In this document: one piece after another, positions 92-53,865 of the stretch | Layout of the letters: each line of letters starts with the position of its first letter | Numbering within the stretch: the first letter of the stretch is position 1 | Assembly: GCF_019059575.1 (NCBI RefSeq) | Contig: NW_024883029.1 | Coordinates: 1 to 64,000, forward strand | Length of the DNA: 64,000 bases | Direction of reading: 5' to 3' | From: Amphibalanus amphitrite | Lineage: Eukaryota > Arthropoda > Thecostraca > Balanomorpha > Balanidae | Notes under the pieces: model-generated | The model's input: only the letters and a program-made list of their open reading frames with translations | Told to the model about the DNA's origin: nothing | Database searches by the model: none | Position numbers and translations under genes: made by a program

Positions 92-1555
92 TCTTCCTAC
101 CACCCCTCTATCAGCTCTGGTGAATGCACATTGTTGGCAGAGAGATCACACGGTGACAGTCGGCCTCTCACAGCGTCGGTACAGAACGAGCTGCCCATGC
201 TGCCCCGTTGCATGGGTAGAGAGCTGGTAGTCGCTGCATGCCGCCGGTTATACACACACTGTCCATTGCACAACATCAGGCACATGTCAATGCAGCTTAC
301 CCACCGCTGTTTTCTCTCCCCCGTCACAAAAACAATCACCCCTCTCTCACTTGCAGCCCTAGAGATATCTTTATTCGATATGAATTAAACATTGTGGTGA
401 GATAATCGCGCAATATAGCTTGCAGCATACGGTTCTTTGTACGCTGATTGTCAGCCTCCAGACGTCATTTCGGTTAATGAACTAGTAATGTGTATTTACA
501 TTACAGCTGCGACGATACCTTCACGGCTAGCGGTGCGAGTAATGATTGTGTTGTCGCTCGATTTATGACTGATTAAGATCCACCTGGACGCGTGACACTA
601 ATAATGGTCATACTCGTACACATGGATCGACTTCCTTCAACAATGGCTTAATTAATACTCGCTTCCTTCAGACACACATGTCAACGCTCCATATCAAGGA
701 CAGGTATTTTCCCAGAGCAAGTGTTATTCCAAGCTTGAGGATGATTGTTGTGGCAGAATACACTATTGGAAAAAAATATAGGTATTATTTGGTATAGGTA
801 CAATGTTTATCACATTACTAATTCTGTACAAAAATCGCATTTGTGTCAGTTTTTTTCTCATTTTTAACGGCTGAATTCAACCGGATTACAAGCGACTTTC
901 ACGTACCTATAATAAATTATTCAGTCATGAAAATGCAATTTAGAAGCGTCCTGGAGCTCGGCAAGGTAACTGGAAATAGCAAAGTCCTGCTGTATGATGA
1001 TGTTGATGAATTTAGAATCATCAAGCATCTTTGAAAATGTTGGCTTTGTCCGTCTACGGAAATCGGTGGCGCCTTCACAGCGCCTCCTATAAAGCTGGTC
1101 ATTCCGTTTGGGCTCATCTGCCGCCGCTTCAGTACCTGCCAGCAAAGCCGCTGAACCCGGGGGTCAAGCGGGCGTCATAGCTAAGTGCCAGAGGCCAGTC
1201 CGAACTGCACTTTCTTAATCGCCAGAGCGCTCGCCTGCGCCCCCGTATGATAATCCTAAGGAGGCTGCTCATTACCATTCTGATAAATAGACGGCTGAGC
1301 TGGCGGCGGCGGCGGTAGCGCCGGTTGAGCAAGTTCATGAAGTCCCGGGCTGTGTGTCCGTCCCACACTGCCCGCCGGCTACTCCCCCTCTCTCCGCTGC
1401 TCTCTGCCTCTCTCCCCGCGGTGCCGGCGTCTCTAATGGTCAGTCACGTGTGAATGCCGTGCCCCTGACCCGGTGCTGTCCCCGTGCCCAGCCCCCGGCA
1501 GCCCGGCTCAGCATCAACCGAGCTCCTCACGGACCATTGACGCTCCTCAGCCGCC
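92..1555. other. Unassigned DNA, GC-rich toward the right
   Basis: I see no convincing gene here. Open frames are short and have no recognisable domain. From about 1060 to 1555 the sequence becomes GC- and CpG-rich with a small GGC/GGCGGC run near 1300-1320, which could be the edge of a gene or promoter region, but no exon with splice signals could be supported. It ends at the target site of the hAT-like element. Confidence 0.5.
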
Positions 1556-1716
1556 GTCTGCGTTAGGGTGCATCAAACGCCCCGATGTCTTCAAATCGAT
1601 CTGTCTGTTGATTCAATTTGTTCCACTGGTAGCACAATGACGCTGTGCAAAATTAAAATTATATCGGATGCCATCTAGGGGGTCCGCATCAGCTATGAAC
1701 ATGCTTCATCACTTAA

Positions 1717-3804
1717 CCTTCCCCGATGGAGGGGCTTGGTGCGACCACTGCTGTTTTTGTCGCGACGGGTCGAAACACGTCCGATTAGGGAACTTTAATT
1801 TGGCTCCTGACCTTTGATACTTAAGCCTGAGCATTCGGCATTTGCTGCATTTTGATATCAGGTCAGGTCAGTGACCTATGACGTCATACGCGAACCTCTC
1901 GATGGTCTAAAAATGTTGTATAGCTTCGCAGCGCTCTCAGAGTCGGGGAATGTTTCGCAGGGAGACGAAACTGAAGAAATCACAAGCTTTCAAATTTGTA
2001 CAACTTTTTTCCTCTGATTTTCTTTTCCGTAAAGGTCGCCTGAGGTCATAGGCGGCCGAACGGGAGAGGGGGGCAACGGGGCACCGTGCCCCCTTTGATT
2101 TTGGCATGTTAACATTAGCCCTATTGGCGTTGCATGGAAAGAATGGGACCAAAAGTCGGCAGTGCCCCCCCCCCTAATTGAAGGTGTTTCATCGCCACTG
2201 TTAGAGGTCCAGGTCAGTCACGTGACCCCTCCATTTACCGTTATGCCCCATAGGTAATGATACAGGAACTGCTCAGTTAGCGCCAAATATGATCCAAATT
2301 TGTTTCAGGACTTGAAATCCTATTTTTGTGCCCGTTTTCGTGGATTGATGCCTGGTCTGTATTCAACTTGGGCCATGACGTCTTTTGACATCACTAAGAG
2401 TATTTGAGATCATCGCAAGTTTTCCTCAATAAGCCGAAATTAAGCACGAAAATAATAACTATAAATAGTTTCAGCTTAGCCCACTGATACACATTACCTA
2501 TATTTAGGAAGTAGGACTTTTGATGGGAGGGAAGACAAATTGCTTCGTTAAGCTCCAATGACTAACTGAATTTGTTCGGTTAAAGCGGTTCTTGCCATAT
2601 TCTATGGTTCTGTGCTTCAACGACATGACCTGCTTTTAGACGAACTCATAATTATGTAAATGACACCGATATTAACACCGATATTATTGGTTTAGAGTGA
2701 CTCGTGAGTATTTTGTGAGCAATCCGCAAATAATTCTCATGTAATTTGATGAGCACGTCTTCGACAACTAGAGTGAGCCGCTCTTCCCGTCGGTAATTGT
2801 TCGTCAACCTCAGGATGGACCAAGTCCCTGTGGAGCGTCGCAACTCTTATTGGACTCTCATCCTTCGCAGACAGGTGTAGTGCATCCGACGTTGTCAACG
2901 ACCTTGCGGTTTCAGTAGCGACCTCCGAACTTGATATCTTGGTTTTGTTGCCGCTACTTGCACAATTGAGTGTTGCCGGGGCTTGGGTGCGGTCTTGCCG
3001 GGGTGTGGCTGGCGATGATCAATCTGACTCGGTTTCCATATTTCTCCCATTGACCCAAAACAGCACGAGTAGGTCACGACCACGTGAACGACATTATCTC
3101 AGGTCACCGGAATGGAATATCTGAGCTTCATCTCCTTGTGAAAGACCCTTCCTCGTGCGTCGACGAGTGGATGCAACGCTGAATGGTCGGCGCTATATAG
3201 TTGTTGCACCAGAAACATAGCCCAGGAAGGGGGAGAGAGCGCAGGCCTTTCAAAAAGCAGACCCACTGACACTACAGTAGCGTCTGATGATAGGAGCATT
3301 GTCTACTCATCTTGTAAGCGTGAACATTGAAGCGTTTGGGCATTGAACACCTACGAAGTAGTTTTGTTGCCTTCGTAACATGTTTTGAAGCTGTCTGTGG
3401 TGGTTGACACCTACAGCCTACTATGGATAGCTAGCATGAGGACGCCCACTGGTTGACCTGACCTGACCTGACCCCACCTAGCCTAAATGCATAGAGACAT
3501 CATCTTTGATCAAAACTAATATGAAATTCGTAATCAGCACCCCGAAAAAAAACCTACAACAAACTAAATTTAGCAAGTCCTACCGGTCCCGATTTTCCCG
3601 ACTTTTGGGTCATTGACCTGACCTGGAAGGTCAACCAATGACCTAGGACCTTAAAAATGGACATGATCGACTTCTTCCCATTACGGGAAACACGCTAGTA
3701 ATTCCGTGAAGCTCTAGCTTGATCAGGGACCGAACAGCAAGAGGGTCCAACGGACCCCCTCCCCTGTACGTTAGACGCACACCAAACACCAATGCGGGCG
3801 AGGG
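1717..3804. mobile_element. TTAA-flanked AGGTCA-rich repeat (family B) nested in the hAT-like element
   Basis: TTAA occurs at 1713-1716 and 3805-3808. The right end (GCGAGGG before TTAA, preceded by a C-rich run and a conserved segment from about 3310) matches the right end of the better-preserved family B element at 22462-22773. The left end CCTTCCCC resembles the family B left end only loosely. About 1.1 kb in the middle (2200-3310) has no match that I can see and may be another insertion. TGACCTGACC-type motifs near 3457 and 3614 are shared with the other copies. Confidence 0.55.
2049..2199. mobile_element. ~150-bp MITE, copy 1 of 3
   Basis: The sequence runs from TAGGCGGCCGAAC through CACCGTGCCCCC, TTAACATTAGCCCTAT, GCATGGAAAGAATGGGACC and a poly-C run to AATTGAAGGTG. 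It matches 27625-27773 and 43295-43459 over its whole length. The ends in the other copies form an imperfect inverted repeat around GCGGCGGAA, so it is probably a miniature inverted-repeat element. Confidence 0.75.
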
Positions 3805-11189: not shown

Positions 11190-11663
11190 GAGCTAGCGAG
11201 TCGAGAAAGCCACCAATGGACTCAGGAAGACTTGCCGAATCGAATGATATGCAACATGACCTCCTTCAACCAACTTCGTGATCTGGAGGACTCTGACCTG
11301 ACCTTGACCCACCCACGGACCTTGACCCCTTAAGTTAACTTCAGCCGAACAAAAAGTATACCATTCGACGCGCCTGCGTGAGGCGAACATGATGATACCA
11401 AAATTGCGGCTCTGCGGCATTTTTTCGCTAAGTTATTAATAAAAAATGAATCCGCGCCTGGGTCACTTGACCTGACCTCAGAGGTCACAGGTTGGCCTGA
11501 GACCTTAAAATCGGATACAAGTCGCTGCGTCTCGTAACGGCGCACACGCTCGTTTTTTTCCGCGGGGCTCTAGCTCCATCAGGGGCGAAACAGCGACGGG
11601 GGTCGTACCAACCCCCCCCCCCCCTTCGGCCGGCGCGTATTTTGAAAACCAATAAGTCCGGCG
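11190..11663. repeat. AGGTCA-rich dispersed repeat, partial family B copy
   Basis: The right part (GACCTTAAAATCGG, CACACGCTCGTTTTTTTCCGC, GCTCTAGCTCCATCAGGG, poly-C, then GGCGAGGGG) matches the right ends of the copies at 3640-3804 and 22600-22773. The left part (CAATAACTCCCGATT and GATATGCAACATGACC) instead matches the related repeat near 26190-26280, so this copy looks chimeric. Confidence 0.65.
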
Positions 11664-17723: not shown

Positions 17724-19233
17724 TTTATTGCTATTGGCTCATAATCCTGGTTGTTGCCATCTGGCAGCAACAAAAACTGTCTTCCAATAGCCGGAAGGGG
17801 CAGTAACATTCATCAGAAGCTGCCCTGGGATCTCATTAAAATCGGATCGTGCCGTCCGCCGGGGACTATGTTCCAATCCTCTCACTCATTGGTCAATACG
17901 GCGAGGAAAGCAACAAGAAGACAAAAACACCAATATCACTACGACTTGTCGAAACTTTATCTCGCTTGAGAGGCGACAATGTACCGAAAAATAAAAATAA
18001 GTCACTCGAGGACCGATTAAAGGGACCCTCCCACCTTCAAAAAAGTTAATGAATTGGCATGAAAGTGATGTCCCTTGGTTCAGAAAGAGCGAAAACGAAT
18101 ATCTACCAAATTTCACAGAAAAATATTCACTGGTTTTCAAGATATTAGGCTTTTACTTTTGTTTACTTTTTGGGATCTCCCCTGTTACTAGCGACTTTAT
18201 TTGGAAGCAATAATTTGGCAGCCTTAACCCTCGCATGTGTAGGGGGGGTCGGATGGACCCCCCCATGGTTTTTCGCAAATAACTCGCGTAAAAAGCGGCC
18301 GATCGCGACGAAACTTTCAGTACCCTCGCATTGATCAATTTTACACCTACCCTGAAAATTTCATGACCCTGACCCAAATGACCTTTGACCTGTGACCTCT
18401 TTTCCGAGACCATGTTTGGCAGGAATCGCGATTTGGCGTACGTCGGCTCGCATTAGCCGCGCGTTTGCAAGCTTTTCGTGGTTTCAAACGTTCAAACATG
18501 TGATTTGATGTTGCTCCCATGCATTAGGGTGGGTGTCAAGGTCACCTGAAGGTCAGGTCAGGTCATTGATCTTTGGTGACCTCGGGTGACCTCAGTTCAC
18601 TTTTTCGAGTTTTACATGTTTCTAGGCTAGTTTTTGGAGCTGAATTCGAATTTAGCAACCATTTGAACATTTACGAAGTAGATTTGGTGCCTTCGTAACA
18701 TGTTACGAAGCTGTCAGAGGCGGTTGACACGTACTACGAATACCCGTCACGACGCCTACTGGTTGACCTGACCTGACCTGACCTGACCCGACTTCGTCTA
18801 AATGCTTAAAGGTAGTGTGCCACCTTTGAAAGATTTCCCGTTTTATTTTTCCTAGGATGAGAAGCTTCTGTTTTTACCTAATATCGCAAAAAAAAAAATC
18901 AAAAATGGGCCTGGAATAGTGCCTTTTTCGCCTAAAAGTTTATCGGTTTTTAGATATGTATAACAACTGTAGTGGGCTCACCTGCAAACAGGCGTCGGGC
19001 AACAATCGCGAATGCGGCGCACTTGTGACAATAAGCAAAGGTCATTATAGTGTTACGACCATACGACGTACGGGAATGAGTTATCAGCTGTCTAATCGTA
19101 GACAACACAATGTCGAGCCTTAAACTGTAAGCCTGTATTGGTATTGTTTTTTAAATTTGGCTGTCGAACATTAATTTGTGGTTTGAAATATGATTTTATG
19201 TAAAATAATTGATATGAAACAGCCGTCTCTTAA

Positions 19234-22013
19234 AGGGACCATCCCACCTTAACATTAGTTTTGAGTTGAGATAGCCAAGTTTGCGGCCAGGCTCAGAAAC
19301 CACCATTTATCCTGGTCGCAACCCCCGCAGGTTTATGGTGTTCAAGAAATTTCTTCCCTTTACTTGCAGGGTGGGACCAGCTTAGTCCCTATCTCTTAAC
19401 CATTAGCGGTTTTTCGATGACGTCAGCAGTCATTTCAACGCCCGCCATTCCTTGAACCCGAGTTTTGCTGACCTTGAGCTCCCTTTTTTATCAACGTGAA
19501 ATCCGTCGTCGGCGCTGACATGAGAAAGCCTATTGCTTTTCATTTTAATTTGAATATTAGAAGATACCCACCACTGGAACTTGGACTGATATTATACCAA
19601 GGCCGAATATGATCAAGCTGCCTGCTATATCTGGAGCTTGGTGTTCAACTTCAACATGGAATAAAAAACAAAATATCAAAGCAAACTGGATATGGTACTG
19701 CAAGTGAAAGTCCAAAGAAATTTGAAGAGCTGACAATTGACATTAATTCTTTTCCTGTAAGGTTTCCATATGGAAATCACACCATGAAGAAATATGTTTG
19801 ATGTTAACAGTTGAAAGGGGATTGATCTTCCAGTTTTGACGAAAGACGCTGCTGACTGTCTTTGGAAAAGGATGTCGGCATGAGGTGCAATTGTGCTTGT
19901 GAAGTGGTTATAACTGGTCTTTTCACAGTATTAAATTAAATGTGCCATTGCAGCCAAGTGTGTTATCATATAAGGTAAAATCAAAACTACAATGTTGGTT
20001 TTACGAGCATTGAGAAGGCTGGTAGGTAACACCTGCCTGTGCTCGTAAATCACATGCTGCCAAAGTATTCTAAATTAATTTTATCATACACTTTTGTTGT
20101 CCAGAATGGTTGCACTATTGTTTGGTATCATATTATTCCATGTAAATATGGTAGTGTAAAGTCCGACCAACATGTTACCAGATTTGAAGCTGTTACGTTA
20201 CCTAAGTACCTGTTTTTTACTGGCGTGGTGAATGTCACCTGGATTTTGTTTTGAGGTGCAGACCTTGTAACTCTGACTACATGGGTTTGAAACTATTATC
20301 TATTCTGTTTTTACTGGCCTGGTGAATGGCGACTGATGTTCGTGGATGGCACTGAAACAAATTTTGAGTGTCATGTACAGTGTTTTAATACAATGCTGAG
20401 GGCTGAAAGTTGTCTTGTTTAGAGTGGTGAACGTTCAGGATATGCCAGCCACCATGGTGGGTCAGAGTTAATGTGTTGCAACTTGCAGTCAGTTCGGCTT
20501 CGGCAAGCACATGGATGGGCATACGCATCAAGACCTGCTCTGCCATACTTTCAGCCAATTTTACCTAGGTAAGTCTTTTCTTTTTTTCTGCCAAAAGCTA
20601 TGACATTGTGAATTTCAGTGCTGTGGCCTGTGTGTAGCTTTCAGGAAAGCAATTCTTAATAAAGCTCTGATAAAGTGCAAAATCAGCAATGCAGCCCTCT
20701 ATTACATTTTCTACAACATCTTACTTGTTCCTTGCATGGAGAGAAAAATGCAATGTTATGAATTCGTTTATTCACATAATTTGACAAGCATGCAGTTACC
20801 TGCTACTATCACTGCACAAAACAGAGCAGAAAACATAAGTTGATCAAACACAAGACACAACAGAAGTTTACAACATAGGGCTGCCGAACCTGCTTCCTCC
20901 CACCACAGTTGATGCCATTTCCTAGCCTGGCTTGATGTGAGCACTGAATAGCTGCTCTGTCTAATTACAGCTCACTACCATTCAACTTAAACTACTATCT
21001 TTAAAGTAAGAGTGAGAGCGTTCAGTGTTCATAGCAGCTCGACAGACGACAGACAACAAACATCTTGACAAACCAACCAGTATTTGATTTGGCTAATGAT
21101 TTATGTGCTTGTTGTATCATGGCCAAACTACTTTAACAGCAATAATCCCTGTTTCATCTTGATCTTGCTTTTATTTCCATTTGAACTCAGATCTTGAAAC
21201 AATCATCTGAAGTGATATCATCTACTGGCTTCTGTTTCTCTTGAAAGAAAGTTTAAACAACAATGATAAACTAAGGCAGGAGATGTGAGTTGTGGCAGTA
21301 GATTTTTGATTCAACATATGTCAACCTTATATTGCTTGAGACCTCTGTGACAGACAAACAAATATTTATAGTTTTTTGATAGTTTGGATTCTTGGCTTGA
21401 TTTAGCAGATCAGCTGTGAACCTTGACTTTGAAATCACATAAATGTCATGGTACCCGAACGAATCCTCGCATGACATTTCTTCGTAGCACAATTTTTCGT
21501 CCGCATTTCTTCGTCTACAAATCTTCGTCGGTGCATTTATTTGTCCCTCAATGCTTACTTTTGCATATAGGTATTTGCGTTGAAGAAGAAATGCGAGCCG
21601 ATTTTCATATACCCTGATGCGAGACAAAGTAATGGGATACGAATAAATGCCCTGACGAAGATTTGCAGACGAAGAATTGCGATACGAAGAAATGCCATAA
21701 GAAGATTGTCCTGGAATCCTTTATTGGCCATCATATATTGACCTTGATAAGATAAACGCATCATTCGCGCAATATTTGTCGCACTTTGATACCAAACTAT
21801 TGCTTCCAAATGCCGACGTAAAGAAAACCTTTACGTGACGTCATAGAAACAGCGGAGTTCCCAAAAAGTAAACAAAAATAAAAGTCTTATATCTCGAAAA
21901 CGGGTGAACATTTTCCGGTAAAATTTGGTAGATGTTCATTTTCGCTCTTTGTGATTCACGCTACATCACTTTTATGCCAGTTCATTAACTTTTTTGAAGG
22001 TGGGAGGGTCCCT
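19234..22013. mobile_element. TTAA element F (innermost shell), 2780 bp, same family as E, inverted
   Basis: TTAA at 19230-19233 and 22014-22017. The left end (AGGGACCATCCCACCTTAAC onward, at least 45 bases) matches the reversed right end of E. The right end (about 21825-22013) matches the reversed left end of E. F is therefore the same family as E in opposite orientation. It is far longer than E's own ~490 bases; its interior (19450-21400) shows no protein I recognise and may be a longer family member or carry captured DNA. Confidence 0.82.
21450..21705. repeat. Foldback repeat with TTCTTCGT motifs inside element F
   Basis: The left half has CATTTCTTCGTAGCAC, CATTTCTTCGTCTAC and AAATCTTCGTC, each about 20 bases apart. 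The right half carries the complement (GACGAAGATTTGCAGACG, GATACGAAGAAATGCC). Together they can form one long imperfect hairpin with a loop of roughly 60-80 bases. Confidence 0.7.
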
Positions 22014-23094
22014 TTAAGTTATGACCCCATTACACCACACGCAAGTGGCAGAAATGACAATGATCAGCTGACGCATTTTTCTTGGCCGAAGTCAGAGCGC
22101 GCGGCCCGACGCACCACGCGTATTTGGAAACTCCGACCTCGACGAGCATCAGAAGCCACCTAACAGGCGTGTTCGAAACCACAGGAGATGATGATGAACG
22201 GGTTTATCGAAACTTGATTGGATGAGCCTATCGGTAATAGCGATTTTAGTGTGTGCATTTATTGTTCATAGTGGTGTGAAATGTGGTTGGGGTACGACCG
22301 ACAACCCGTCGGGGCGAATTTCGCACTGGGGTACTCAAAATTTGAAGAATTTAAGACGTTTCCATAAGTTTTAAAGGTATGGATAAGTTCTAAAAATCCG
22401 GTTCTCCTTATCCGGGTCATTAACTCCATATGGTCCAAGAAAGCTGGCACACTACCTTTAAAGACATCGTCTGTGATCAAAACTAACACGATATTCGTGA
22501 TCAGCACCCCGAAAAACCCCTTAGCAGCCACACTTTACGACTTTCTAATAGGTCCCGATTTTCCCGACTTTGGGTCATTGACCTGACCTGGAAGGTCAAC
22601 CAATGACCTAGGACCTTAAAATTGGGTATCATCGGCTTCCTCTCGTCACGGGCAACACGCTCGTTTTTTTCCGCGAAGCTCTAGCTCGATCAGGGGCCAA
22701 ACGGCAAGGGGGGTCCAACCGACCCCCCCCCCCTACACATTAGAAGCTGGAAAACGCCGCACACATGCGAGGGTTAAAGTGCGGCAGACGTTGCGCGCAA
22801 AGCAGCGTATACTCACCACGTGTTAACGATGGTTTTAGTCTAAGATTTAAAAATCGTTAGATCTCCGCTGACGTCACAAATTCTAAGGGGGCATTCCAAT
22901 GCATTAGCCCCTTAGAATCCGAAAACTGCAAGTTTGAAATTCCATATCTTCGAATTAAAGCATTTTTCGATGTTGTGAGTGCCCAAACCGGTATTTGCAG
23001 GCCATGGCCACCAATTTGGCTATCTCAACTCAAAACTAATGTTAAGGTGGGAGTGTCCCTTTAAGACCGTTAAAAAGGATCAACTAATCAGAAG

Positions 23095-24150
23095 CAACGG
23101 TCAGTGGGAGAGTCGGAGACGTTCAGTGGGGTCAATGGGAGACGGTCAGTGGGGTCAATGGGAGACGGTCAGTGGGGTCAATGGGAGACGGTCAGTGGGG
23201 TCAATGGGAGACGGTCAGTGGGGTCAGTGCGGTCAGTGGGAGACGGTCAGTGGGAGACGGTCAGTGGGAGACGGTCAGTGGGAGACGGTCAGTGGGAGAC
23301 GGTCAGTGGGAGACGGTCAGTGGGAGACGGTCAGTGGGAGACGGTCCGTGGGAGACGGTCACTGGGAGACGGTCATTGGCTGTCATTGGGAGACGGTCAG
23401 TGGGGTCAGTGCGGTCAGTGAGAGATGGTCATTGGGAGACGGTCATTGGGAGACGGTCATTGGGAGACGGTCATTGGGAGACGGTCAGTGGGATACGGTC
23501 GGTGGGGAGAGTGGGGTCAGTGCGGTCAGTGGGAGACGGTCAGTGGGAGACGGTCAGTGGGAGACGGTCATTGGCGGTCATTGGGAGACGGTCAGTGGGA
23601 GACGGTCATTGACAGTCATTGCCATTGGGAGACGGTCAGTGGGAGACGGTCAGTGGGAGACGGTCAGTGGGAGACGGTCATTGGCGCCTTGGCGGTCAGT
23701 GGGAGACGGTCATTGGCGCCTTGGCGGTCATTGGGAGACGGTCAGTGGGAGACGGTCAGTGGGAGACGGTCAGTGGGAGACGGTCAGTGGGAGACGGTCA
23801 GTGGGAGACGGTCAGTGGGAGACGGTCAGTAGGAGACGGTCAGTTGGAGACGGTAACTGGTCAGTGGGAGACGGTCAGTTGGGTCAGTGAGAGACGGTCA
23901 GTGGGAGAAGGTCAGTAGGGTCAGTGGGATCAGTGGGAGACGGTCAGTGGGGGACGATGAGAGGGGGGGTCAGTGAGAGACGGTCAGTGGGGTCAGTGGG
24001 AGACGGTCAGTGGGGTCAGTGGGAGACGGTCAGTGGGAGACGGTCAGTGGGGGACGATGAGAGGGGGGTCAGTGAGAGACGGTCATTGGGGTCAGTGGGA
24101 GACGGTCAGTGGGGTCAGTGCGGGCAGTGCGGGCAGTGGGAGACGGTCGG
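23095..24150. repeat. 14-bp minisatellite (GGGAGACGGTCAGT)n
   Basis: About 1.05 kb of GGGAGACGGTCAGT and variants (GGTCATT, GGTCAATG and extra GGGGTCAGT or GCGGTCAGT blocks). Because 14 is not a multiple of 3, every forward frame cycles through the same 14-residue peptide, so all three forward frames stay open for 100-300 codons. These frames are not evidence of a gene. Confidence 0.95.
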
Positions 24151-24966: not shown

Positions 24967-25660
24967 GCACTTGTGGGGAGGGGGAGGGGGAAGGGGTCGG
25001 ATAAAACCCCATGGTTTTCCGCAAATTACTCGCGCAAAAAGCGGCCGATCGCGCCGAAACTTTCGGTACCCCCGAGATCATCAATTTTACATCTAACCTA
25101 AAAATTTCATGACTCTGACCCAACTGACCTTTGACCTGTGGCATATTTCTCGAGACCATGTTTGGCCGGAATCGCGATTCGGCGTATGCCAGCTCACATT
25201 ATCCGCGGTTTCCAGTCTCTTTGTGGTTTTAAACGTTCAAATATGTGAAATGATGTTGGTGCCATGCATAATGGTGGGAGTCAAGGTCACGTGAAGGTCA
25301 AGTCAAGGTCATTGACCTTTTGATGACCTTGGTTCACTTTTTCGAGTTTTACTTGTTTCTAGGGTAGTTTTTGGTGCTGATTTCGATTTTAGCAGCCATT
25401 TGAATATTTACGAAGTAGTTCTAATGCCTTCGTTCCATGTTACGAAGCTATCAGTAGTAGGTGACACTTCTATGGATGGCCGGCAGGACGCCTACTAATT
25501 GATCTAACCTGACCTGACCCGACCTGGCCTAAATGCATAAAGACATCGTCTGTGATCAAAACTAACATGAAATTCGTGATCAGCACCCCAAAATACCCCG
25601 TAACACCCTAACTTTGCAAAGTTTCAAGAGGTCTCGATTTCCCAACTTTAGTTGGGTCAT
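24967..25660. repeat. Family B AGGTCA-rich element, uninterrupted but 3'-truncated
   Basis: Matches element B from the G-rich start through CCATGGTTTTCCGCAAATTACTCGCG, CATGACTCTGACCCAA, TTACGAAGTAGTTC and AAAGACATCGTCTGTGATC to about TTTAGTTGGGTCATT at 25660, where it breaks off into a different repeat. It is the empty-site reference for element C. No TTAA is seen at its left edge. Confidence 0.75.
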
Positions 25661-25674
25661 TAACCTTCGCCCCA

Positions 25675-33582: not shown

Positions 33583-35340
33583 CTAGCGCTGGTTCCGCCA
33601 GTAGACTCGGCCACTGGGCAGCCGGACCAGGTAGTCGCGCCGCTGTCCGACCGCCGTGATGACGCCGACGCGGTCCCACAGCCCCGACCGCGGGTCTTGG
33701 ACGAGCACACGCTGACCCATGGTGAGCGCGCTGTGCTGGCGGGCTGTCGTGTCGTACCGCTCGGCTGTTTCCTGTTGCTGCGCGGCGGCCCTGGCGTCAC
33801 AGTCGTCCGCCGCCCGCTGCCAGCAGTCGGCGAAGGCCCGGTGGTGCGCCGGCACTGCCGATCTCAGCGGGTGGCCGAACAGGACCTGAGCCGGAGAACG
33901 GCCGTCGGCGCGCGGCGTGTTGCGCAGCTCCAGCAGCCCCTGCGCGTAGGCGTCCGTGTCGAGCTCGCCGCTGCTGGTCGCCTTCTGGATGAGCCGTTTG
34001 GCGGCCTTGACCGCCGACTCGGCGTGCCCATTAGACTGAGGGTAGTGCGGTGTAGAGATCTGGTGCTCCACTCCCCAGCGGCGCAGAAACTCTCGGGTGA
34101 GCCGGGCGGTGAACTGGTGTCCACCGTCTGTCCGGAGGGTGGTGGGCACGCCGGTGGCCGCGAATATCTGGCGCAGGCTGCAGACCAGGTCTCTGGCAGT
34201 CGCCTCGCCGGCCACGTGCGACACAAACGGCCACCCGGACAGCCGGTCCGCGTATACCAGGAACGTGCGGCCGGCCCAGGCGAAGTAGTCAGCGGAGACA
34301 GCCTCAAACACTCGTGATGGCGTCTTTTCCGGCATCAGCGGCCCCTTCTGCTGACTGGGCAGGTACTGCTGGCAGGCCGGGCACGCTCCCAGATGGTTCG
34401 CAATGTCACTGTCCAGGAACGGCCAGTAGACTACCTGCCGCGCGCGGCGTTTGGTGCGCTCGACGCCCTGGTGACTGGCGTGCAGACGCTCGAGCGTGGC
34501 GCGCCGCAGACTGGGCTGTATCACGAGCCGCTGGCCGCACACCACCAGGCCGTCGTCCACGGCCAGCCGGTCCCGAACTCCCCAGTACGGTCGGAGGCGC
34601 GGGTCCAGCTGTGACCGGTGCTCTGGAAACCCGTTCAGGATCAGGTCAGTGAGTGCGATGAGCTCCGGATCGGCGGCGGCGGCGGCGCGCACCTCTGTCA
34701 GCGCCGCGTCTTTGAACGGGCTGGGACCGTCGTCCGCCCCGTCGGTGGCCAGCCGTGAGAGCACGCTGGCGAGCTGATGGCTGGCGTCCCTCTCGGCTTC
34801 CTCGTCCTCAGGCGCCGGGTCATCCACCGGCGCGCGCGACAGCGCGTCCGGGATGGCGTGCAGCTTGCCTTGCCGCCAGATGGCGAGCAGGTTGAACGGC
34901 GCCAGCCGTTCTCGTAGCCGCTGGAGCCGCGGATTTTCGATCTCCGCAAGGCTCTTACTGTTGAGGATCGGGATGAGCGGCCGGTGATCGGTCAGGACTT
35001 CAAACCGCTGCATCCCGCCGAGATAGATGCTGCATTTCTTGCAGGCCCAGGCCAGGGCCAGCAGCTCCAACTCGATCACGGCGTACCGCGACTCGGCGTC
35101 CGATAGGAAGCGTGAGCCGCACTGGATCAGTCGCTACCGGCCTGCGGCGTCTTGCTGCAGCAGGCAGTAGCCCAGGCCGCCGGAGCGAGCGGCGTCAGTC
35201 TCAAGGACTGTGCGGCGGCGAGGGTCGAAGAAGTCGAGCACGGGAGGCGACGTGAGTGCCATCTTCACCGCGCTGAACGCCTGCTCGTGCGCTGGCGTCC
35301 ACAGCCACGCGTTCCGCGGCCGCAGCAGCTGTCTCAGCGG
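33583..35340 (-). pseudogene. gypsy pol, RNase H and integrase part
   Basis: RNase H begins just after the TAG at 35343 (VLETDAARSGGLGYCLLQQD), is interrupted by another TAG near 35137, and continues SRFLSDAESRYAVIELELLA with FEVLTDHRPL. From 35079 a 498-codon open frame holds the rest. Integrase follows: the HHCC zinc-binding region (LHASHQGVERT and CPACQQY), then the catalytic residues in VSADYF, LRTDGGHQF and SNGHAES, spaced as in Ty3/gypsy enzymes. It ends with a short basic/aromatic tail before the stop at 33583. The integrase frame is intact. Confidence 0.85.
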
Positions 35341-37365
35341 CTAGGCGGCGGCGGCGACCTCTGGGGAGAAGGCGCCGAGCTGGGTCACCAGGCCGAGGAA
35401 CGACCGTAGGTCGGTGATGTTGCCCGGCCTGGGGAAGGCCTGGATGGCACGGACTTTCTTGCCGTCGGCGGTATAGCCAGCCGAATTGATGCGAAAGCCG
35501 CAGAATTCGACCTCGTCTTCCGCGAACTGACATTTGTCCGGGTTGAGTGTGATACCGTGCTGGTCACACCTTAGCAGAATCTGCCGCACGTGCTGCAGGT
35601 GGGCGGCGTAGTCAGCGTCATAGGCCAGGACGTCGTCCACGACCTTACACGTGCGCGGGATGTCGCCGAGCGCGGCGTCACCGCGCTGGTTGTACACGTC
35701 GCCAGAGCTGACGATTCCCATTGGAGCCCTCAGGTACCGGTAGCGGCCCCACGGCGTGATAAAACACGTCAGGTCTCGTCTCTGTCTTCTGGCCGGATGG
35801 GGACCTGGTGGTACCCCGCCTTGCTGTCCAGCTTGGTGAAGTACGCAGCGCCGGGTGAGACGAAGGCGAGTGCGTCTTGAGGCGAGCGGACCGGGTACGT
35901 CGGTCGCTTCACGAACCAGTTCAGTTTCGTGAAGTCCACGGTCAGCCGACAGCCGGACACTGTGCCGTCTGACGACCCCTTGGCCACAGGAACGATCGGA
36001 TGACACCAGTCTGTGGGGTGCTCCACCGGCTCGATGATGTCCTTTTCCATCAGCTCGTCGAGTTGCAGTCGCACGTCCTCTCGCCAACAGAACGGGATAT
36101 TCCGGGCGGTGGTCACAGCGTGAGGGACGGCGTCGTCCGTCAGCTCGATCTTCATCGGCTCCCCCGTCATCTTCCGCAGGGTCGACTCCGTATCGAAGAC
36201 CCTCGGGAACTCGGCTTTCAATTTGTCGAAATCTGCCCGCCGCTGCCGTGCGGAGGGGGTGCCACCGGCGGCCGGGCGGCGGCGCGCGCGTAGGGCCGGG
36301 CGGCGGCGCCCGCCCGGTCGGGTCGGCGCCGGCCGAGCTGGCGGCCGGCCGGTCGGCGGCAGAGACGCGGCTTATGTCCCGGGTCTCCTCAGGTGCCGCC
36401 GTCGTGCCGCTGCAGCGCCGTAGTGCGGGCTGTCTGCCGGCGGCGGGGGCCTCAGGCGGCTCGCCGGGCGGCGGCGGCTCCGGTGCCCCACCGTCCGTCC
36501 CAGTCTCGGCTGCCGAGCCGCGCTGGCAAATCTGCCGGGGAAAGCTCGCCGGTAGAATTCCCAGGCCGATACAATCGTGCCACGACAGCAGTGGTGAGTG
36601 CAGTGCTCGCAGAACGGACACCTGCACGGTCTGTATGACGTCACCGAGCTGCAGGGTGAGGGCGTACGTGCCCACACAGTCCAGCCGGCGGCTGTCGGCG
36701 GCCCACAGCACAGCCGTGGAGGGCGTGAGGTCCGCTCTGCTCACTCCCATGGACTCGGCTTGTTGCAGTGAGAGGGCTGATATCTCGGCGCCTGTGTCGG
36801 GCGTCCATACGGTCGTCCGCCTGACTCCGTTTGGCAGGTGCAGCTGTAGCCGGACCTGCGGCGACCGGTGGGCCGTCACACTGTTGAGGCGCGCGCCCGG
36901 CGTCCGGGCTGCCGGCGGCGCTGGCTGCTGCCGGTTCCCCGTGTCTCTCGTGGTTGCATTCGCTGCCAGCACCGAAACCTGCCGGTGCGACGCGTCGGCA
37001 GCCGTGCTGACACGGCGGCGGCTGATTGCGCTACGGTGGCGCCGGCCCCTCCCCTGGCGGCTGCTGCTCGCGCTACGGAAGCGCCAGTCCTGTCCCTGGT
37101 GGCTGCGCTCGGAACTAGGCGTCTGCCGGCGCCGCTCTTCAGTGCCCGCGGCATGCCGGCAGACCGAGGAAAAGTGGTCCCGTTCGTGGCCATCGGTGGC
37201 AGGTGCGACCCAGGGCGGGGCAGGCACGACCGTCCGTGTGCTGCGCGGCACCGCAGCGGTCACACCGCCGGGTCTGGTCGGCCGAGCGCGAGTCCGCGCC
37301 GCTCGGCCGACCGCGCTGTCGCCGGTACTCGGAGAGCCGGCGCAGAGACGGCTCGCCCGGGCCAC
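35341..37365 (-). pseudogene. gypsy pol, protease and reverse transcriptase part
   Basis: The minus frame carries an aspartic protease with the DTGAEIS active site at about 36790-36805. RT sequence begins in another frame (35769-36221: ELTDDAVPHAVTTARNIPF, RLTVDFTKLNWFV, YFTKLDSKAGYHQVPI). It returns to the first frame with CFITPWGRYRYLRAPMG and the palm motif VVDDVLAYD near 35630-35655. The catalytic Asp pair is kept, with Val in place of the usual Tyr before it. The frame ends at a TAG at about 35343. A single base shift near 35770 and one between protease and RT are required, so the copy is broken as read. Confidence 0.8.
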
Positions 37366-38134
37366 GGATCGCCGAGCTGTTGAGACGGGCGCTCTCGGAC
37401 GCCCGGCACAGGTCGGCGGCCATCTGGAAGGTCAGATCGGGCAGTTCCAGCATGCGGCGTCTGGCCTCGTCATCACTGGTGCCCACCACCAGATGGTCTC
37501 GGAACCTATCATCGGTGCAGTTCGGGCAAAAATCACAGCAGGACGCTATCTCCTTCAGGGCGCAGATAAAATCGTCCACTGACTCGCCTGGCTCCAGCAT
37601 CCGCATGTTAAACTCGCAGCGGTCGATCACCACGTTCCGCTGCCGCCGAAGGTGGGTGTGCATGGCGGTGATTACATCGGCCATGGACGCCTCGGCCGGG
37701 ATGGGCAGGCCAAACCGGACCACGCGGGCCCAGTCGTCGTCGAGAACAGCGAGCAGGGCGGCCCGCTGCTCAGCCTCGGTGAGATCGCGGACGCCGGTGA
37801 GGAGGCAGTAGCCGGAGAACTTCTCTTTCCAGGCCTCAAACTCCTTGAGGGTAGCGGTAGCCGCCAGCCGGGGCGTGGGCGTGCCGGCGGCGGGCATGCG
37901 TGCACGCGGCCGGGCGCCGGAATCGGGCCCCGCGGCTGCCTGGGCGGGTGCCGTGGCGTCCTGCACGGCCGTCGGGCCGGGAAGCACCCGCTCCAACAGC
38001 GCGGCCATCCGCTCCTCACGTCGCGCTGCCGCTGCAGCCAGCTCCAATTACTGCTGCAGCATGCCCCGAAGTAGCTCCATCTCAGACGGCTTCTCGGCGG
38101 CGGCGGCCGACTGCGCCTCATCGCCGCCCGCCAT
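37139..38134 (-). pseudogene. gypsy gag (capsid and zinc knuckle), with a premature stop
   Basis: Gag packages element RNA. The frame starts at an ATG at 38134 and meets TAA after 28 codons (about 38047); it then stays open for 300 codons to 37139. The central part (LKEFEAWKEKFSGYCLL, FNMRMLEPGESVDDF) fits gypsy capsid regions. Near 37250 there is a Cys/His cluster, CDRCGAAQHTDGRACPALG then TCH, a single zinc-knuckle-like motif with unusual spacing. It overlaps the start of the protease/RT frame by about 230 bases, as expected for gag-pol frameshifting. The early stop may be mutation or error. Confidence 0.75.
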
Positions 38135-51300: not shown

Positions 51301-53865
51301 TCCAACCCCGCCGAATAGCCTAGTAAAGATCCCTGTCGAGATGACGAATATCACAGATAGCAGCACCATCTTCCGGTTATACCTGAAACACCGGAAAACG
51401 TCACAACACCTGTCAAAGCGCCCGATAGTAATGTTCCTAGCTTCACTTTATCGACACGACTGGCCAGCCTTTCCACTTCGCCTTTAGCCGCAAAAGGCAG
51501 TCTAACAACAAAAACCAATATGAGAACGTCATTTCCTAATCCGCTCAGCCTCTACCGACACTCCTTACTAAGCCACCGACCATTTCCCGACTGCTTTCCA
51601 TAAACCCTCCACGGCACTTACCCATTGATCTGTTCCTGGCGCATCACCGCGAACGTGTAGCACTCCAGCACTCCGTTCACCGCCAGTAAGAGCACGTAGG
51701 CGCACTGGGCGCGCAGCAGACTGACGGCCGGACCGGCGGTCAGCAGGGCGCCTCCGTACAGTCGCAGCAGCAGGTCGGAGTAGCTCCAGCCGAACGTGAC
51801 GGCAACCAGACCGAGCAGGCTCATGGCGCGCGCAGCAGGTCGTGCAGAACCCGGCCCGCCGCGGCAGACACCGGCTGCAGGGAGAGGAGGTAGGGTCAGA
51901 CTCATAGCGCGGAGTAGGTCGTGTAGCACCCGGCCCGCCACCGCAGACACCGGCTGGAGGGGGAGTGAGCTGTCAGGCACCGGCTGGAGGAGAGGTGCCA
52001 AACTGTCCCCTTCCAGTGACTGGCGAGAAGGGGAGAGATGGCCAGAAGGATAGAAGCTGGGCAACAAAACAAACCGAATGACAAAAAAGACACCAAGATG
52101 AAGATCACAACGACTGGCAGTAAGGACTTATAGCGGAGATGAAGAGTAGCTACGAGTATAATTGGCTAATATCAGAGTGTGTGCTTACAGCTTTTTCGGC
52201 GCCTCACCGGGCATCGACACACTGTGGTCAACGTTACTGATATTTTCACCAAATGCCACTACTCCTCAGTAAAAAACAAAAACAAAAACAAAAACTAACA
52301 TCAAACACCTCCTACCACACAATCAGCCGGCCACGTTGCCACCTACCTTTCCCCGTTCCACTGTGCGCGAGAAGTAGACGTAGGCGTTCTCCTCGACTGG
52401 CTGAAAGAGGAAGCGGGCCGCCAGGCTGCCCAGGTTGGCCACCACGTCGTACAGGCCCTGCTCGGAGAAGTCGAGCAGGTGGAAGGCGGTCATCAGGTAG
52501 CGCTCGCCCTCCGTCAGCAACTGCTTCAGCAGGCCTTGTTTGAAGAAGCTCCAGGTGAGGGCCAGCTGGTCACGGTCCAGCGCCGGCTGACGGGGAGGGG
52601 AGGAGAGGTATTACTGTTCAGTGAAGAGAGATGGCAGCAAGGGTCACATCACCACCGTCGCGACAGGAAATGTTAGAGGCAGACGCGGTTGCTGGGAAAA
52701 CGTGGCAGCACAACTTTGGCTCTATTTCTGAGGATACTCGATCCAGCGCTGCCGTGAGCTGTCTGTAACACAGGTAGGTCTTAATACCGTTTGACTGCAA
52801 TCTAAGAGGCCTTAGACCTAAAGTTCTAGCTAAATGAAACGAAGAATGCGACGACTTGGCCAAAAGAAACCACTATGACCGCGAAAACGCTTGACTACAT
52901 TTGAAACCCCGCCCCTTTACAAATAGTTCACTGGCCTCACCTGTCCCGGCACCAGTCTGGGTCCCAGCTCGCTCGCCGACTTCACCGGTAGACAGTTATC
53001 CGGTGAGCGGACGTGCCAGAGCAGGGTGCCGTAATAGATGACCACGAGGAGAGCGGAGCTGACCGCGTGGCCCACACAGTAGGCCCAGATGGCGTGGGAC
53101 GGGTACAGGGCGATCAGCCAGGCTTTGAGCGCCACCCGACTGCACAGACTGACCATGTCGGCTACCACCTTGGGAGAGAGGGAGAGCGGGTGGGTGAGAG
53201 AGTGGTGAGAGGAGATGGGGAGGGGCGAGAAGACGATAAGAGAGTCAGAGATAATCCACATATGCCAGCAAGGTAGGGAGAATACAGTACTTCAACGCGG
53301 TGTGAACGATCGACGATCCGCAAACGACTGTCACAGCAGGCGATTTGAGCTTCAGATATAATTTCACTGATATAGCAGAGTCATCGGGGAACCGACGCGC
53401 CTCAAATATTTTCCCCTGACACCCTGTTCCTCTCCTCTGCGTCACCCCACCGCCGTCATTCACCTTCAATTTGACAAATAGCATGGCCTGCGCCAGGATG
53501 ACCAGCGGCTGGGCGGCCGTCTCCAGTACGACCATGGCCGCGGTGACCCACACGCCCAGACGGTACTCTGAGGTGACCTCAGGCGCCGGCTGGCTGAGCG
53601 CGTGCAGCCAGAGGCCGGCCAGCGCCGCCGACACCGCCGCTGACACGGGCACGCTAAAAGGGGAGCGGGGCGTCAGTCAGAGGCAATTACAACACTGCTC
53701 TTTTGTAATACACTCAATTCACTGGCAATAAAACATTACATAGGTACTTATGGAAAAAAGTAAAGGGTGCATACCTGACACTGATGATGCCCAGGACATC
53801 AGATGTAATATACCGGAGAATGACTGCATTTGTGATGAATGTGAACAGTACACTCGGTAGGTTAT
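48163..53865 (-). CDS. RFT1: RFT1-like ER lipid-linked oligosaccharide protein, seven exons, 5' end missing
   Basis: RFT1 is a multi-pass ER membrane protein needed for N-glycosylation, linked to translocation of Man5GlcNAc2-PP-dolichol. Exons on the minus strand: 53775-53865, 53464-53653, 52941-53168, 52347-52586, 51622-51953, 51254-51382 and 50704-50815 continuing at 48163-48309. All have AG/GT borders with compatible phases. Strong family matches include [79 protein letters not shown] and [16 protein letters not shown]. The initiator exon was not found, nor the ~40 residues that other RFT1 proteins have between exons 1 and 2 as listed. The last exon is split by a hAT-type element and has a frameshift near 50741-50755. 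It is either a recent null allele, a decaying copy, or partly sequence error. Confidence 0.9.
48318..50695. mobile_element. 2378-bp hAT-type element inserted in the RFT1 last exon
   Basis: Perfect 17-bp inverted termini CAGTGTCAGAAAAGTGG (48318) and its complement (50695), flanked by an exact 8-bp duplication CTCGGAGC (48310-48317 and 50696-50703). CAG-type ends with an 8-bp TSD point to hAT. The interior is AT-rich with no frame resembling a transposase, so it is non-autonomous. TTTTGTTCCGTG-like motifs occur near both ends. The perfect TSD and termini suggest a recent insertion. Confidence 0.95.
50704..50815 (-). CDS. RFT1: RFT1 last exon, 5' part (before the hAT insertion)
   Basis: Acceptor CGCCAG at 50816-50821. 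The phase set by the preceding exon gives [20 protein letters not shown] and onward, which matches the family, but runs to a TGA at about 50726. The residues that fit RFT1 after that ([18 protein letters not shown]) are in a different frame, so one base has been lost or two gained near 50741-50755, in a CGCCCGCCG run. Confidence 0.8.
51254..51382 (-). CDS. RFT1: RFT1 exon
   Basis: Acceptor TTTCAG and donor GTGAG. It starts and ends in phase 2 and encodes [14 protein letters not shown] then [20 protein letters not shown], matching RFT1 closely. Confidence 0.9.
51622..51953 (-). CDS. RFT1: RFT1 exon with an internal 79-bp duplication
   Basis: Using acceptor CTCCAG at 51954-51955 and donor GTAAGT the frame is open. 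A 79-bp unit (51875-51953) that contains the acceptor and the start of the exon is repeated at 51796-51874. The second copy has two extra bases (CGCGCGCC against CGCGCT), and 79 plus 2 gives 81, so the combined reading stays in frame and adds 27 residues. Splicing at the second acceptor would hit TGA. The rest reads [15 protein letters not shown] and [19 protein letters not shown]. Confidence 0.82.
51796..51953. repeat. RFT1: 79-bp tandem duplication spanning an RFT1 splice acceptor
   Basis: Copies 51875-51953 and 51796-51874 (about 85% alike by eye) both begin, on the minus strand, with an AG acceptor and CCGGTGTCTGC. A third partial acceptor-like piece, CTCCAGCCGGTGCC, lies just upstream near 51978-51990. 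Confidence 0.85.
52347..52586 (-). CDS. RFT1: RFT1 exon (most conserved)
   Basis: Acceptor CGTCAG and donor GTAGGT, exactly 80 codons. Contains the family hallmark [20 protein letters not shown] and [20 protein letters not shown]. Confidence 0.92.
52941..53168 (-). CDS. RFT1: RFT1 exon
   Basis: Acceptor CCCAAG and donor GTGAGG, 76 codons in phase 0. It continues KLK with [20 protein letters not shown], then a long hydrophobic stretch and LVPGQ. Confidence 0.82.
53464..53653 (-). CDS. RFT1: RFT1 exon
   Basis: Acceptor TTTTAG and donor GTGAAT. Encodes a membrane segment and [20 protein letters not shown] then [11 protein letters not shown], a conserved RFT1 block; ends in phase 0. Confidence 0.85.
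53775..53865 (-). CDS. RFT1: RFT1 exon (N-terminal part)
   Basis: Acceptor TTTCAG before 53865 and donor GTATGC after 53775. It encodes [20 protein letters not shown] and onward, the first conserved RFT1 membrane segment, ending in phase 2. Confidence 0.85.

What the first reader, a model, noticed from the sequence alone, without database searches (positions are those of the whole stretch)
18017..23064. Four TTAA-flanked transposons nested one inside another
Each of E, B, C and F has its own inverted ends and its own TTAA pair, and the boundaries close like shells. C is proved by an uninterrupted family B copy at 24967. E and F belong to the same family in opposite orientation, so that family was active before B inserted and again after, or together with, C. 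This gives a relative time series of piggyBac-like activity: E, then B, then C, with F last or carried by C.
Basis: seen in the sequence. Interest (0 to 1): 0.78.

Follow-up and report, generated by a model that had tools for sequence, protein, structure and literature searches.

The report
Four nested TTAA transposons in barnacle
In a barnacle genome four small jumping DNA elements, probably of two different kinds that share one four-letter landing site, jumped one inside another recently and left a readable order of events.

Summary
Four TTAA-flanked elements close like shells: E 18017-23064, B 18224-22777, C 18806-22461, F 19230-22017. In the same assembly, Amphibalanus amphitrite, each occurs alone at unrelated TTAA sites. 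The order E, B, C, F therefore stands. All four families have near-identical copies. F is identical over 2788 bases to four other copies; private substitutions are 0 of 2788 in F against 10 of 2271 in E+B+C.

Two corrections. First, only B looks piggyBac: it starts TTAA-CCC, like 18 of 18 readable piggyBac elements here. E, F and C have the AG...CT ends published for Kolobok, but no transposase was linked to them. Second, "F carried by C" is not supported: 40 of 40 scored C copies are uninterrupted, and 18 of 18 F copies examined lie outside C. However, E/F-type ends fill that same TTAA of C in 15 loci. Of the 9 measured on both sides, only the window's insert has F's length. This is the best open lead.

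New members of a known kind.

The parts
18017..23064 (+). Element E (outermost, first in): 498 nt when rejoined (18017-18223 plus 22774-23064), ends TTAA-AGGGAC, TIR 20/21
   Evidence: solo copies 497 nt, 20 of 31 extracted sequences identical; window copy differs by 1 substitution and 1 base of length
18224..22777 (+). Element B, inserted in E at its TTAA 208: 902 nt when rejoined, ends TTAA-CCCTCGCATGTGT, TIR 17/17; piggyBac-type ends
   Evidence: 39 other places match the left arm at 96-98%; 7 of 7 loci read have both ends
18806..22461 (+). Element C, inserted in B at its TTAA 583: 872 nt when rejoined, ends TTAA-AGGTAGTGTGCC, TIR 21/22; Kolobok-type AG...CT ends
   Evidence: 40 of 40 scored candidates uninterrupted; 6 of 6 fetched copies have TTAA at both ends and unrelated flanks
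19230..22017 (-). Element F (innermost, last in), 2788 nt, non-coding, E-type ends in opposite orientation to E, inserted in C at its TTAA 425
   Evidence: four other identical copies; 18 of 18 flank pairs read are TTAA-bounded, all different
24993..25666 (+). Old diverged relative of B (82%), uninterrupted at the C site

Best explanation
Four independently mobile, non-autonomous DNA transposons inserted one after another, each into a TTAA inside the previous one, duplicating that TTAA: E into host DNA, B into E, C into B, F into C (shown by anatomy and by solo copies). B is most likely moved by a piggyBac transposase, and E, F and C by Kolobok-type transposases (inferred from end sequences only). 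The nest can form because two superfamilies share one 4-base target and every insertion brings more TTAA (rejoined C has 7 internal TTAA, E 6, B 2). All four insertions are recent relative to the spread of their families. F is the youngest.
For: Rejoined E: 40 of 40 scored candidates full length, 20 identical sequences with different flanks. B: 7 of 7 loci uninterrupted with the TTAA that C occupies here. C: 40 of 40 uninterrupted; 6 of 6 fetched are TTAA-bounded, the F site reading TTAA in five and TTAT in one. F: four other copies with the same full score over 2788 nt, 18 of 18 flank pairs TTAA-bounded and different. Private substitutions: F 0/2788, E 1/497, B 5/902, C 4/872; F versus the rest pooled p = 0.0003. 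Ends: 18 of 18 readable piggyBac elements are TTAA-CCC; a piggyBac family with a PF13843 protein ends TTAACCCTCGCACG, 12 bases in common with B. Kolobok has RR...YY ends; T2 MITEs have TTAA-AGGRR.
Against: No transposase was found for E, F or C: PF20700 matches at 4 contigs, and the one locus looked at showed no TTAAAGG end in 4.1 kb on either side; 150 THAP matches were not examined for ends. C's AGGTA does not fit AGGRR. 12 of 30 piggyBac loci gave no readable end pair. E, though first by nesting, shows the fewest private substitutions of E, B and C (difference not significant, p = 0.70; F versus E alone also not significant, p = 0.15). Window B differs from its siblings by 1.0-2.9%, so B's own age is poorly bounded. 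The C site is filled by E/F-type ends in 14 other loci, so chance alone may not explain the C/F meeting.
Confidence: 0.85

Rival explanations
1. All four elements are piggyBac-derived: E, F and C are moved by piggyBac transposases that accept AG ends.
For: All four duplicate TTAA; piggyBac transposases are numerous here, 116 matches; in L045 a piggyBac transposase lies between a pair of E ends; no Kolobok transposase was linked to E, F or C.
Against: 18 of 18 readable piggyBac end pairs are TTAA-CCC. In L045 the gene has its own TTAA-CCC pair and the rest rejoins to a 497-nt E copy (494 identities). Published Kolobok ends fit E and F better.
Confidence: 0.15
2. C arrived with its passenger: a composite of C plus an E/F-type element moved as a unit, and the window holds one such copy, so F did not insert last by itself.
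For: The left C/F junction occurs 12 times and the right one 12 times, 15 loci in union; shared C variants (AAAAGCC in 6, CATTTC in 9) suggest a lineage of C that already carried an insert.
Against: Of 9 loci with both junctions only the window has a 2788-nt insert; the others are 475-485 (five), 1355, 1498 and 2955. The window has the other C variant. 40 of 40 scored C copies are uninterrupted and 18 of 18 F copies read lie outside C. F has fewer private changes than C (p = 0.003).
Confidence: 0.08
3. The four pairs of ends are internal repeats of one larger transposon, or the product of an inversion.
For: E and F share ends in inverted arrangement.
Against: E, B, C and F each exist alone with TTAA and unrelated flanks; no second copy of the E/B/C junctions among 40 scored candidates.
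Confidence: 0.02
4. Assembly artefact: near-identical repeats were misjoined into an apparent nest.
For: The assembly seems to hold duplicated haplotypes (L034 and L035 share both flanks), and the elements are near-identical repeats.
Against: Each inner element sits exactly in a TTAA that is unbroken in siblings, and the two sides rejoin without loss; three such coincidences by misjoining are unlikely. Not tested with reads.
Confidence: 0.04

Closest known systems
T2 MITEs / Kolobok superfamily (Xenopus; PMC6004289, passages read)
   Same: TTAA target, AG...CT ends; E and F fit TTAA-AGGRR; short non-coding high-copy elements with recent activity
   Different: No Kolobok transposase tied to them here; C has AGGTA; F is 2788 nt, long for a miniature element; different sequence
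piggyBac superfamily and its non-autonomous elements
   Same: B: TTAA target, TTAA-CCC end, 12 bases in common with the end of a PF13843-coding family of the same genome
   Different: B is non-coding, and only the first 12 bases match; the second end of that autonomous family was not seen
KolobokP (PMC9587614; abstract and four sections read)
   Same: TTAA target, RR...YY ends, ~450-660 nt end units that can move alone
   Different: KolobokP carries its units as direct repeats around coding DNA; E and F here are inverted, non-coding and of different make-up. The paper found none in arthropods
Nested insertion as a relative clock (for example REANNOTATE, PMC2672092; seen only as a search listing with the start of its abstract)
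   Same: Same logic: the inner element is younger
   Different: Usually applied to retrotransposons (recalled); here four TTAA DNA transposons of probably two superfamilies

Membership tests
piggyBac (element B) | TTAA target duplication | tested here: met
   window and 7 of 7 loci
piggyBac (element B) | CCC-type termini like piggyBac elements of the same genome | tested here: met
   TTAACCCTCGCATG versus 18 of 18 readable piggyBac pairs TTAACCC; L072/L074 TTAACCCTCGCACG
piggyBac (element B) | Encodes or is moved by a PF13843 transposase | not testable with these tools
   rejoined B is a 902-nt element; a related end was found on a PF13843 family, movement not testable
piggyBac (elements E, F, C) | CCC-type termini | tested here: not met
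   termini are AGGG or AGGT
Kolobok (elements E, F, C) | TTAA duplication with 5'-RR and YY-3' termini | tested here: met
   AG...CT in E, F and C; definition from PMC9587614
T2 MITE (elements E, F) | terminal AGGRR | tested here: met
   AGGGA in E and F; definition
T2 MITE (element C) | terminal AGGRR | tested here: not met
   AGGTA
Kolobok (elements E, F, C) | autonomous partner with a DDE/THAP transposase and the same ends | tested here: inconclusive
   PF20700 (chosen from memory) at 4 contigs, one locus read, no such ends; 150 THAP matches, ends not read
KolobokP | long terminal direct repeats around an internal coding region | tested here: not met
   E and F ends are inverted to each other and no long coding frame was found in F
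Nested transposons | outer element found uninterrupted elsewhere, inner element found alone | tested here: met

The most novel reading that the evidence does not exclude
One TTAA of element C (position 425 of 872, one of its 7 internal TTAA) is a favoured landing site for E/F-type elements, or part of a composite that moves as a unit. Fifteen loci carry such a junction there. In the 9 with both sides the inserts have at least four lengths (475-485, 1355-1498, 2788, 2955 nt). If the insertions are independent, these elements choose particular TTAA sites inside other transposons well beyond the 4-base rule and so build nests non-randomly.
Probability: 0.3. Interest if true: 0.55.

Novelty: new member of a known kind. 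Interest (0 to 1): 0.42.

Why it matters
The nest, together with solo copies of every layer, shows that piggyBac-type and probably Kolobok-type elements were active close together in time and recently in an acorn barnacle, with an order that needs no molecular clock. Five identical 2788-nt F copies, the window's included, point to a very recently active source. The repeatedly filled TTAA in C makes target choice beyond TTAA testable within one genome.

Tried and rejected
One larger element or an inversion: rejected, because all four elements exist alone with TTAA and unrelated flanks.

'F carried by C': not supported. My earlier belief that the C/F meeting was unique was wrong: the junction recurs.

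All piggyBac: disfavoured by ends. Kolobok transposase by way of PF20700: family chosen from memory; 7 matches on 4 contigs, and no TTAAAGG or TTAACCC within 4.1 kb on either side of one of them. THAP: 150 matches, ends not read. KolobokP: structure does not fit. An exact search for E's left end in the genome did not complete. The Rft1 exon had no match in solved structures. Paper searches for the barnacle assembly gave nothing usable; the organism comes plus the contig length. One search oriented three C copies wrongly; one search is the corrected run. Whether nesting is more frequent than chance was not tested.

Full report
Observation. The window (C1532 of an assembly of 807,550,619 bases in 2644 contigs) holds four pairs of inverted ends, each bounded by TTAA, that enclose one another: E 18017-23064, B 18224-22777, C 18806-22461, F 19230-22017. 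Terminal repeats are 17-22 nt at 95-100%. E and F share subterminal sequence in opposite orientation, 87% over 174 nt at one end and 92% over 60 nt at the other. F has no open frame over 149 codons stop to stop.

Organism. A piggyBac transposase from the assembly is 98% identical, over 84% of its length, to an Amphibalanus amphitrite protein. Another A. amphitrite hit lies on a contig of 310901 bases, the length of contig C778 here. The window also has Rft1 exons and immunoglobulin and weak fibronectin matches. L034 and L035 share both flanks, probably a duplicated haplotype, so copy counts are not counts of insertions.

Each layer exists alone. E: of 2088 candidates 40 were scored, and all 40 match the rejoined sequence at full length, 99-100%. 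Thirty loci were read; of 31 extracted sequences, all TTAA-bounded, 20 are identical. The window's E differs from these by one substitution and one base of length. B: of 6256 candidates 40 were scored; besides the window itself 39 places match B's left arm at 96-98%. Seven of these were read: 7 of 7 have both ends, different flanks and an unbroken TTAA at the C site. The window's B differs from them by 1.0-2.9% in substitutions, and two of them are identical. C: of 1860 candidates 40 were scored, all uninterrupted, 99%. Six were fetched: 6 of 6 have TTAA and unrelated flanks, and differ from the window by 0.57-0.80%. The F site is unbroken in all six, reading TTAA in five and TTAT in L077. F: of 2283 candidates 40 were scored; 28 other places match all 2788 positions, four of them with the same score as the window itself, that is, identical. 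Flank pairs were read for 18 of those 28: all TTAA-bounded, all different, none within C. The query across the E/B and B/C junctions had no second full match among 40 scored candidates. Successive insertion in the order E, B, C, F follows.

Timing. Substitutions private to the window copy: E 1 of 497, B 5 of 902 (against 7 siblings), C 4 of 872 (against 6), F 0 of 2788. F against the other three pooled (10 of 2271) p = 0.0003; against B 0.0009, C 0.003, E 0.15. E against B+C p = 0.70. Siblings were the best-scoring ones and some changes may predate insertion. F being last is supported by nesting and by sequence; the order of E, B and C rests on nesting, and E, first by nesting, has the fewest changes of the three.

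Superfamilies. There are 116 matches to the piggyBac transposase domain. Of 30 loci read, 18 gave a readable end pair, all TTAA-CCC. In the other 12 a single TTAACCC lies nearby in 9 and none in 3. In L045 a piggyBac with its own TTAA-CCC pair sits inside an E copy that rejoins to 497 nt with 494 identities. One family (L072, L074) starts TTAACCCTCGCACG exactly where homology between copies begins, 12 bases in common with B; its second end was not seen. Its protein matches PF13843 and solved chains 6x67 ('Transposase'; piggyBac from memory) and 9c0f (piggyBat). B is therefore best filed with piggyBac. E, F and C begin AG and end CT. PMC9587614 (abstract and sections 3, 5, 9 read) says Kolobok also duplicates TTAA but unlike piggyBac ends 5'-RR and YY-3'. 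PMC6004289 (passages) gives TTAA-AGGRR for T2 MITEs; E and F meet it, C does not. No transposase was tied to these ends: PF20700, my choice from memory, matched on 4 contigs, and the one looked at had no TTAAAGG within 4.1 kb on either side. 150 THAP matches were not read.

Why a nest. Every element targets TTAA and brings TTAA: rejoined C has 7 internal sites, E 6, B 2. Other stacking: at least 4 of 30 E copies lie directly against another TTAA-type end. L027 lies against an end equal to that of the L072/L074 piggyBac family; L010 and L036 against TTAACCCGCG ends; L028 against an E-type end. One F copy (C397) adjoins an E-type end. Whether this exceeds chance was not tested.

The C site. The left C/F junction (up to 1 mismatch) occurs 12 times and the right one (up to 2) 12 times; reversed controls 0. 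In union that is 15 loci, 9 with both sides. Insert lengths: 475, 475, 476, 477, 485, 1355, 1498, 2955 and, in the window alone, 2788. Nine right junctions carry the variant CATTTC and six left ones AAAAGCC; the window has neither. The inserts were not read, so 'E/F-type' rests on the junction letters and on length. This may be a C lineage that already carried an insert, or a favoured target. It complicates the simple picture and is the best lead.

Verdict. A real, recent four-layer nest of non-autonomous transposons, probably of two superfamilies. Nesting as a relative clock is known. No repeat database was at hand, so it is not shown that the families are undescribed. One library search on barnacle transposons and one on TTAA MITEs with Kolobok or piggyBac listed, among the titles shown, no paper on barnacle TTAA elements.

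Noticed in passing
L045:719-3863: A second nest: a piggyBac element with its transposase (825-3476, TTAA-CCC ends) inside an E copy.
   Followed up: partly
L038:482-1997: An 84.6% E relative (482-966) and an E copy (1501-1997) share the same 12-base flank on facing sides, as if a third TTAA element with AGGAAATAG ends lay between them.
   Followed up: no
L010, L027, L028, L036: At least 4 of 30 E copies sit directly against the end of another TTAA-type element.
   Followed up: partly
L034 and L035: Same flanks on both sides: probably a duplicated haplotype in the assembly.
   Followed up: no
window 23093-24140: Large minisatellite of about 14-base units (GGGAGACGGTCAGT) directly beside the nest.
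   Followed up: no
window 21462-21707: Foldback (inverted arms of 54 and 76 nt) inside F; related pieces near F and E copies elsewhere.
   Followed up: no
window 33583-37431: Frames that read like a Gypsy-type retrotransposon (from memory, no family search done). Described only.
   Followed up: no
window 51618-53676: Exons of an Rft1 gene on the minus strand (PF04506).
   Followed up: no
window 3343-3778 and 11459-11622: Further old B relatives at 79%.
   Followed up: no
G000, several contigs: THAP-domain frames in many copies with equal scores, for example frames of 539 aa on 7 contigs: possible transposase families, ends not read.
   Followed up: no
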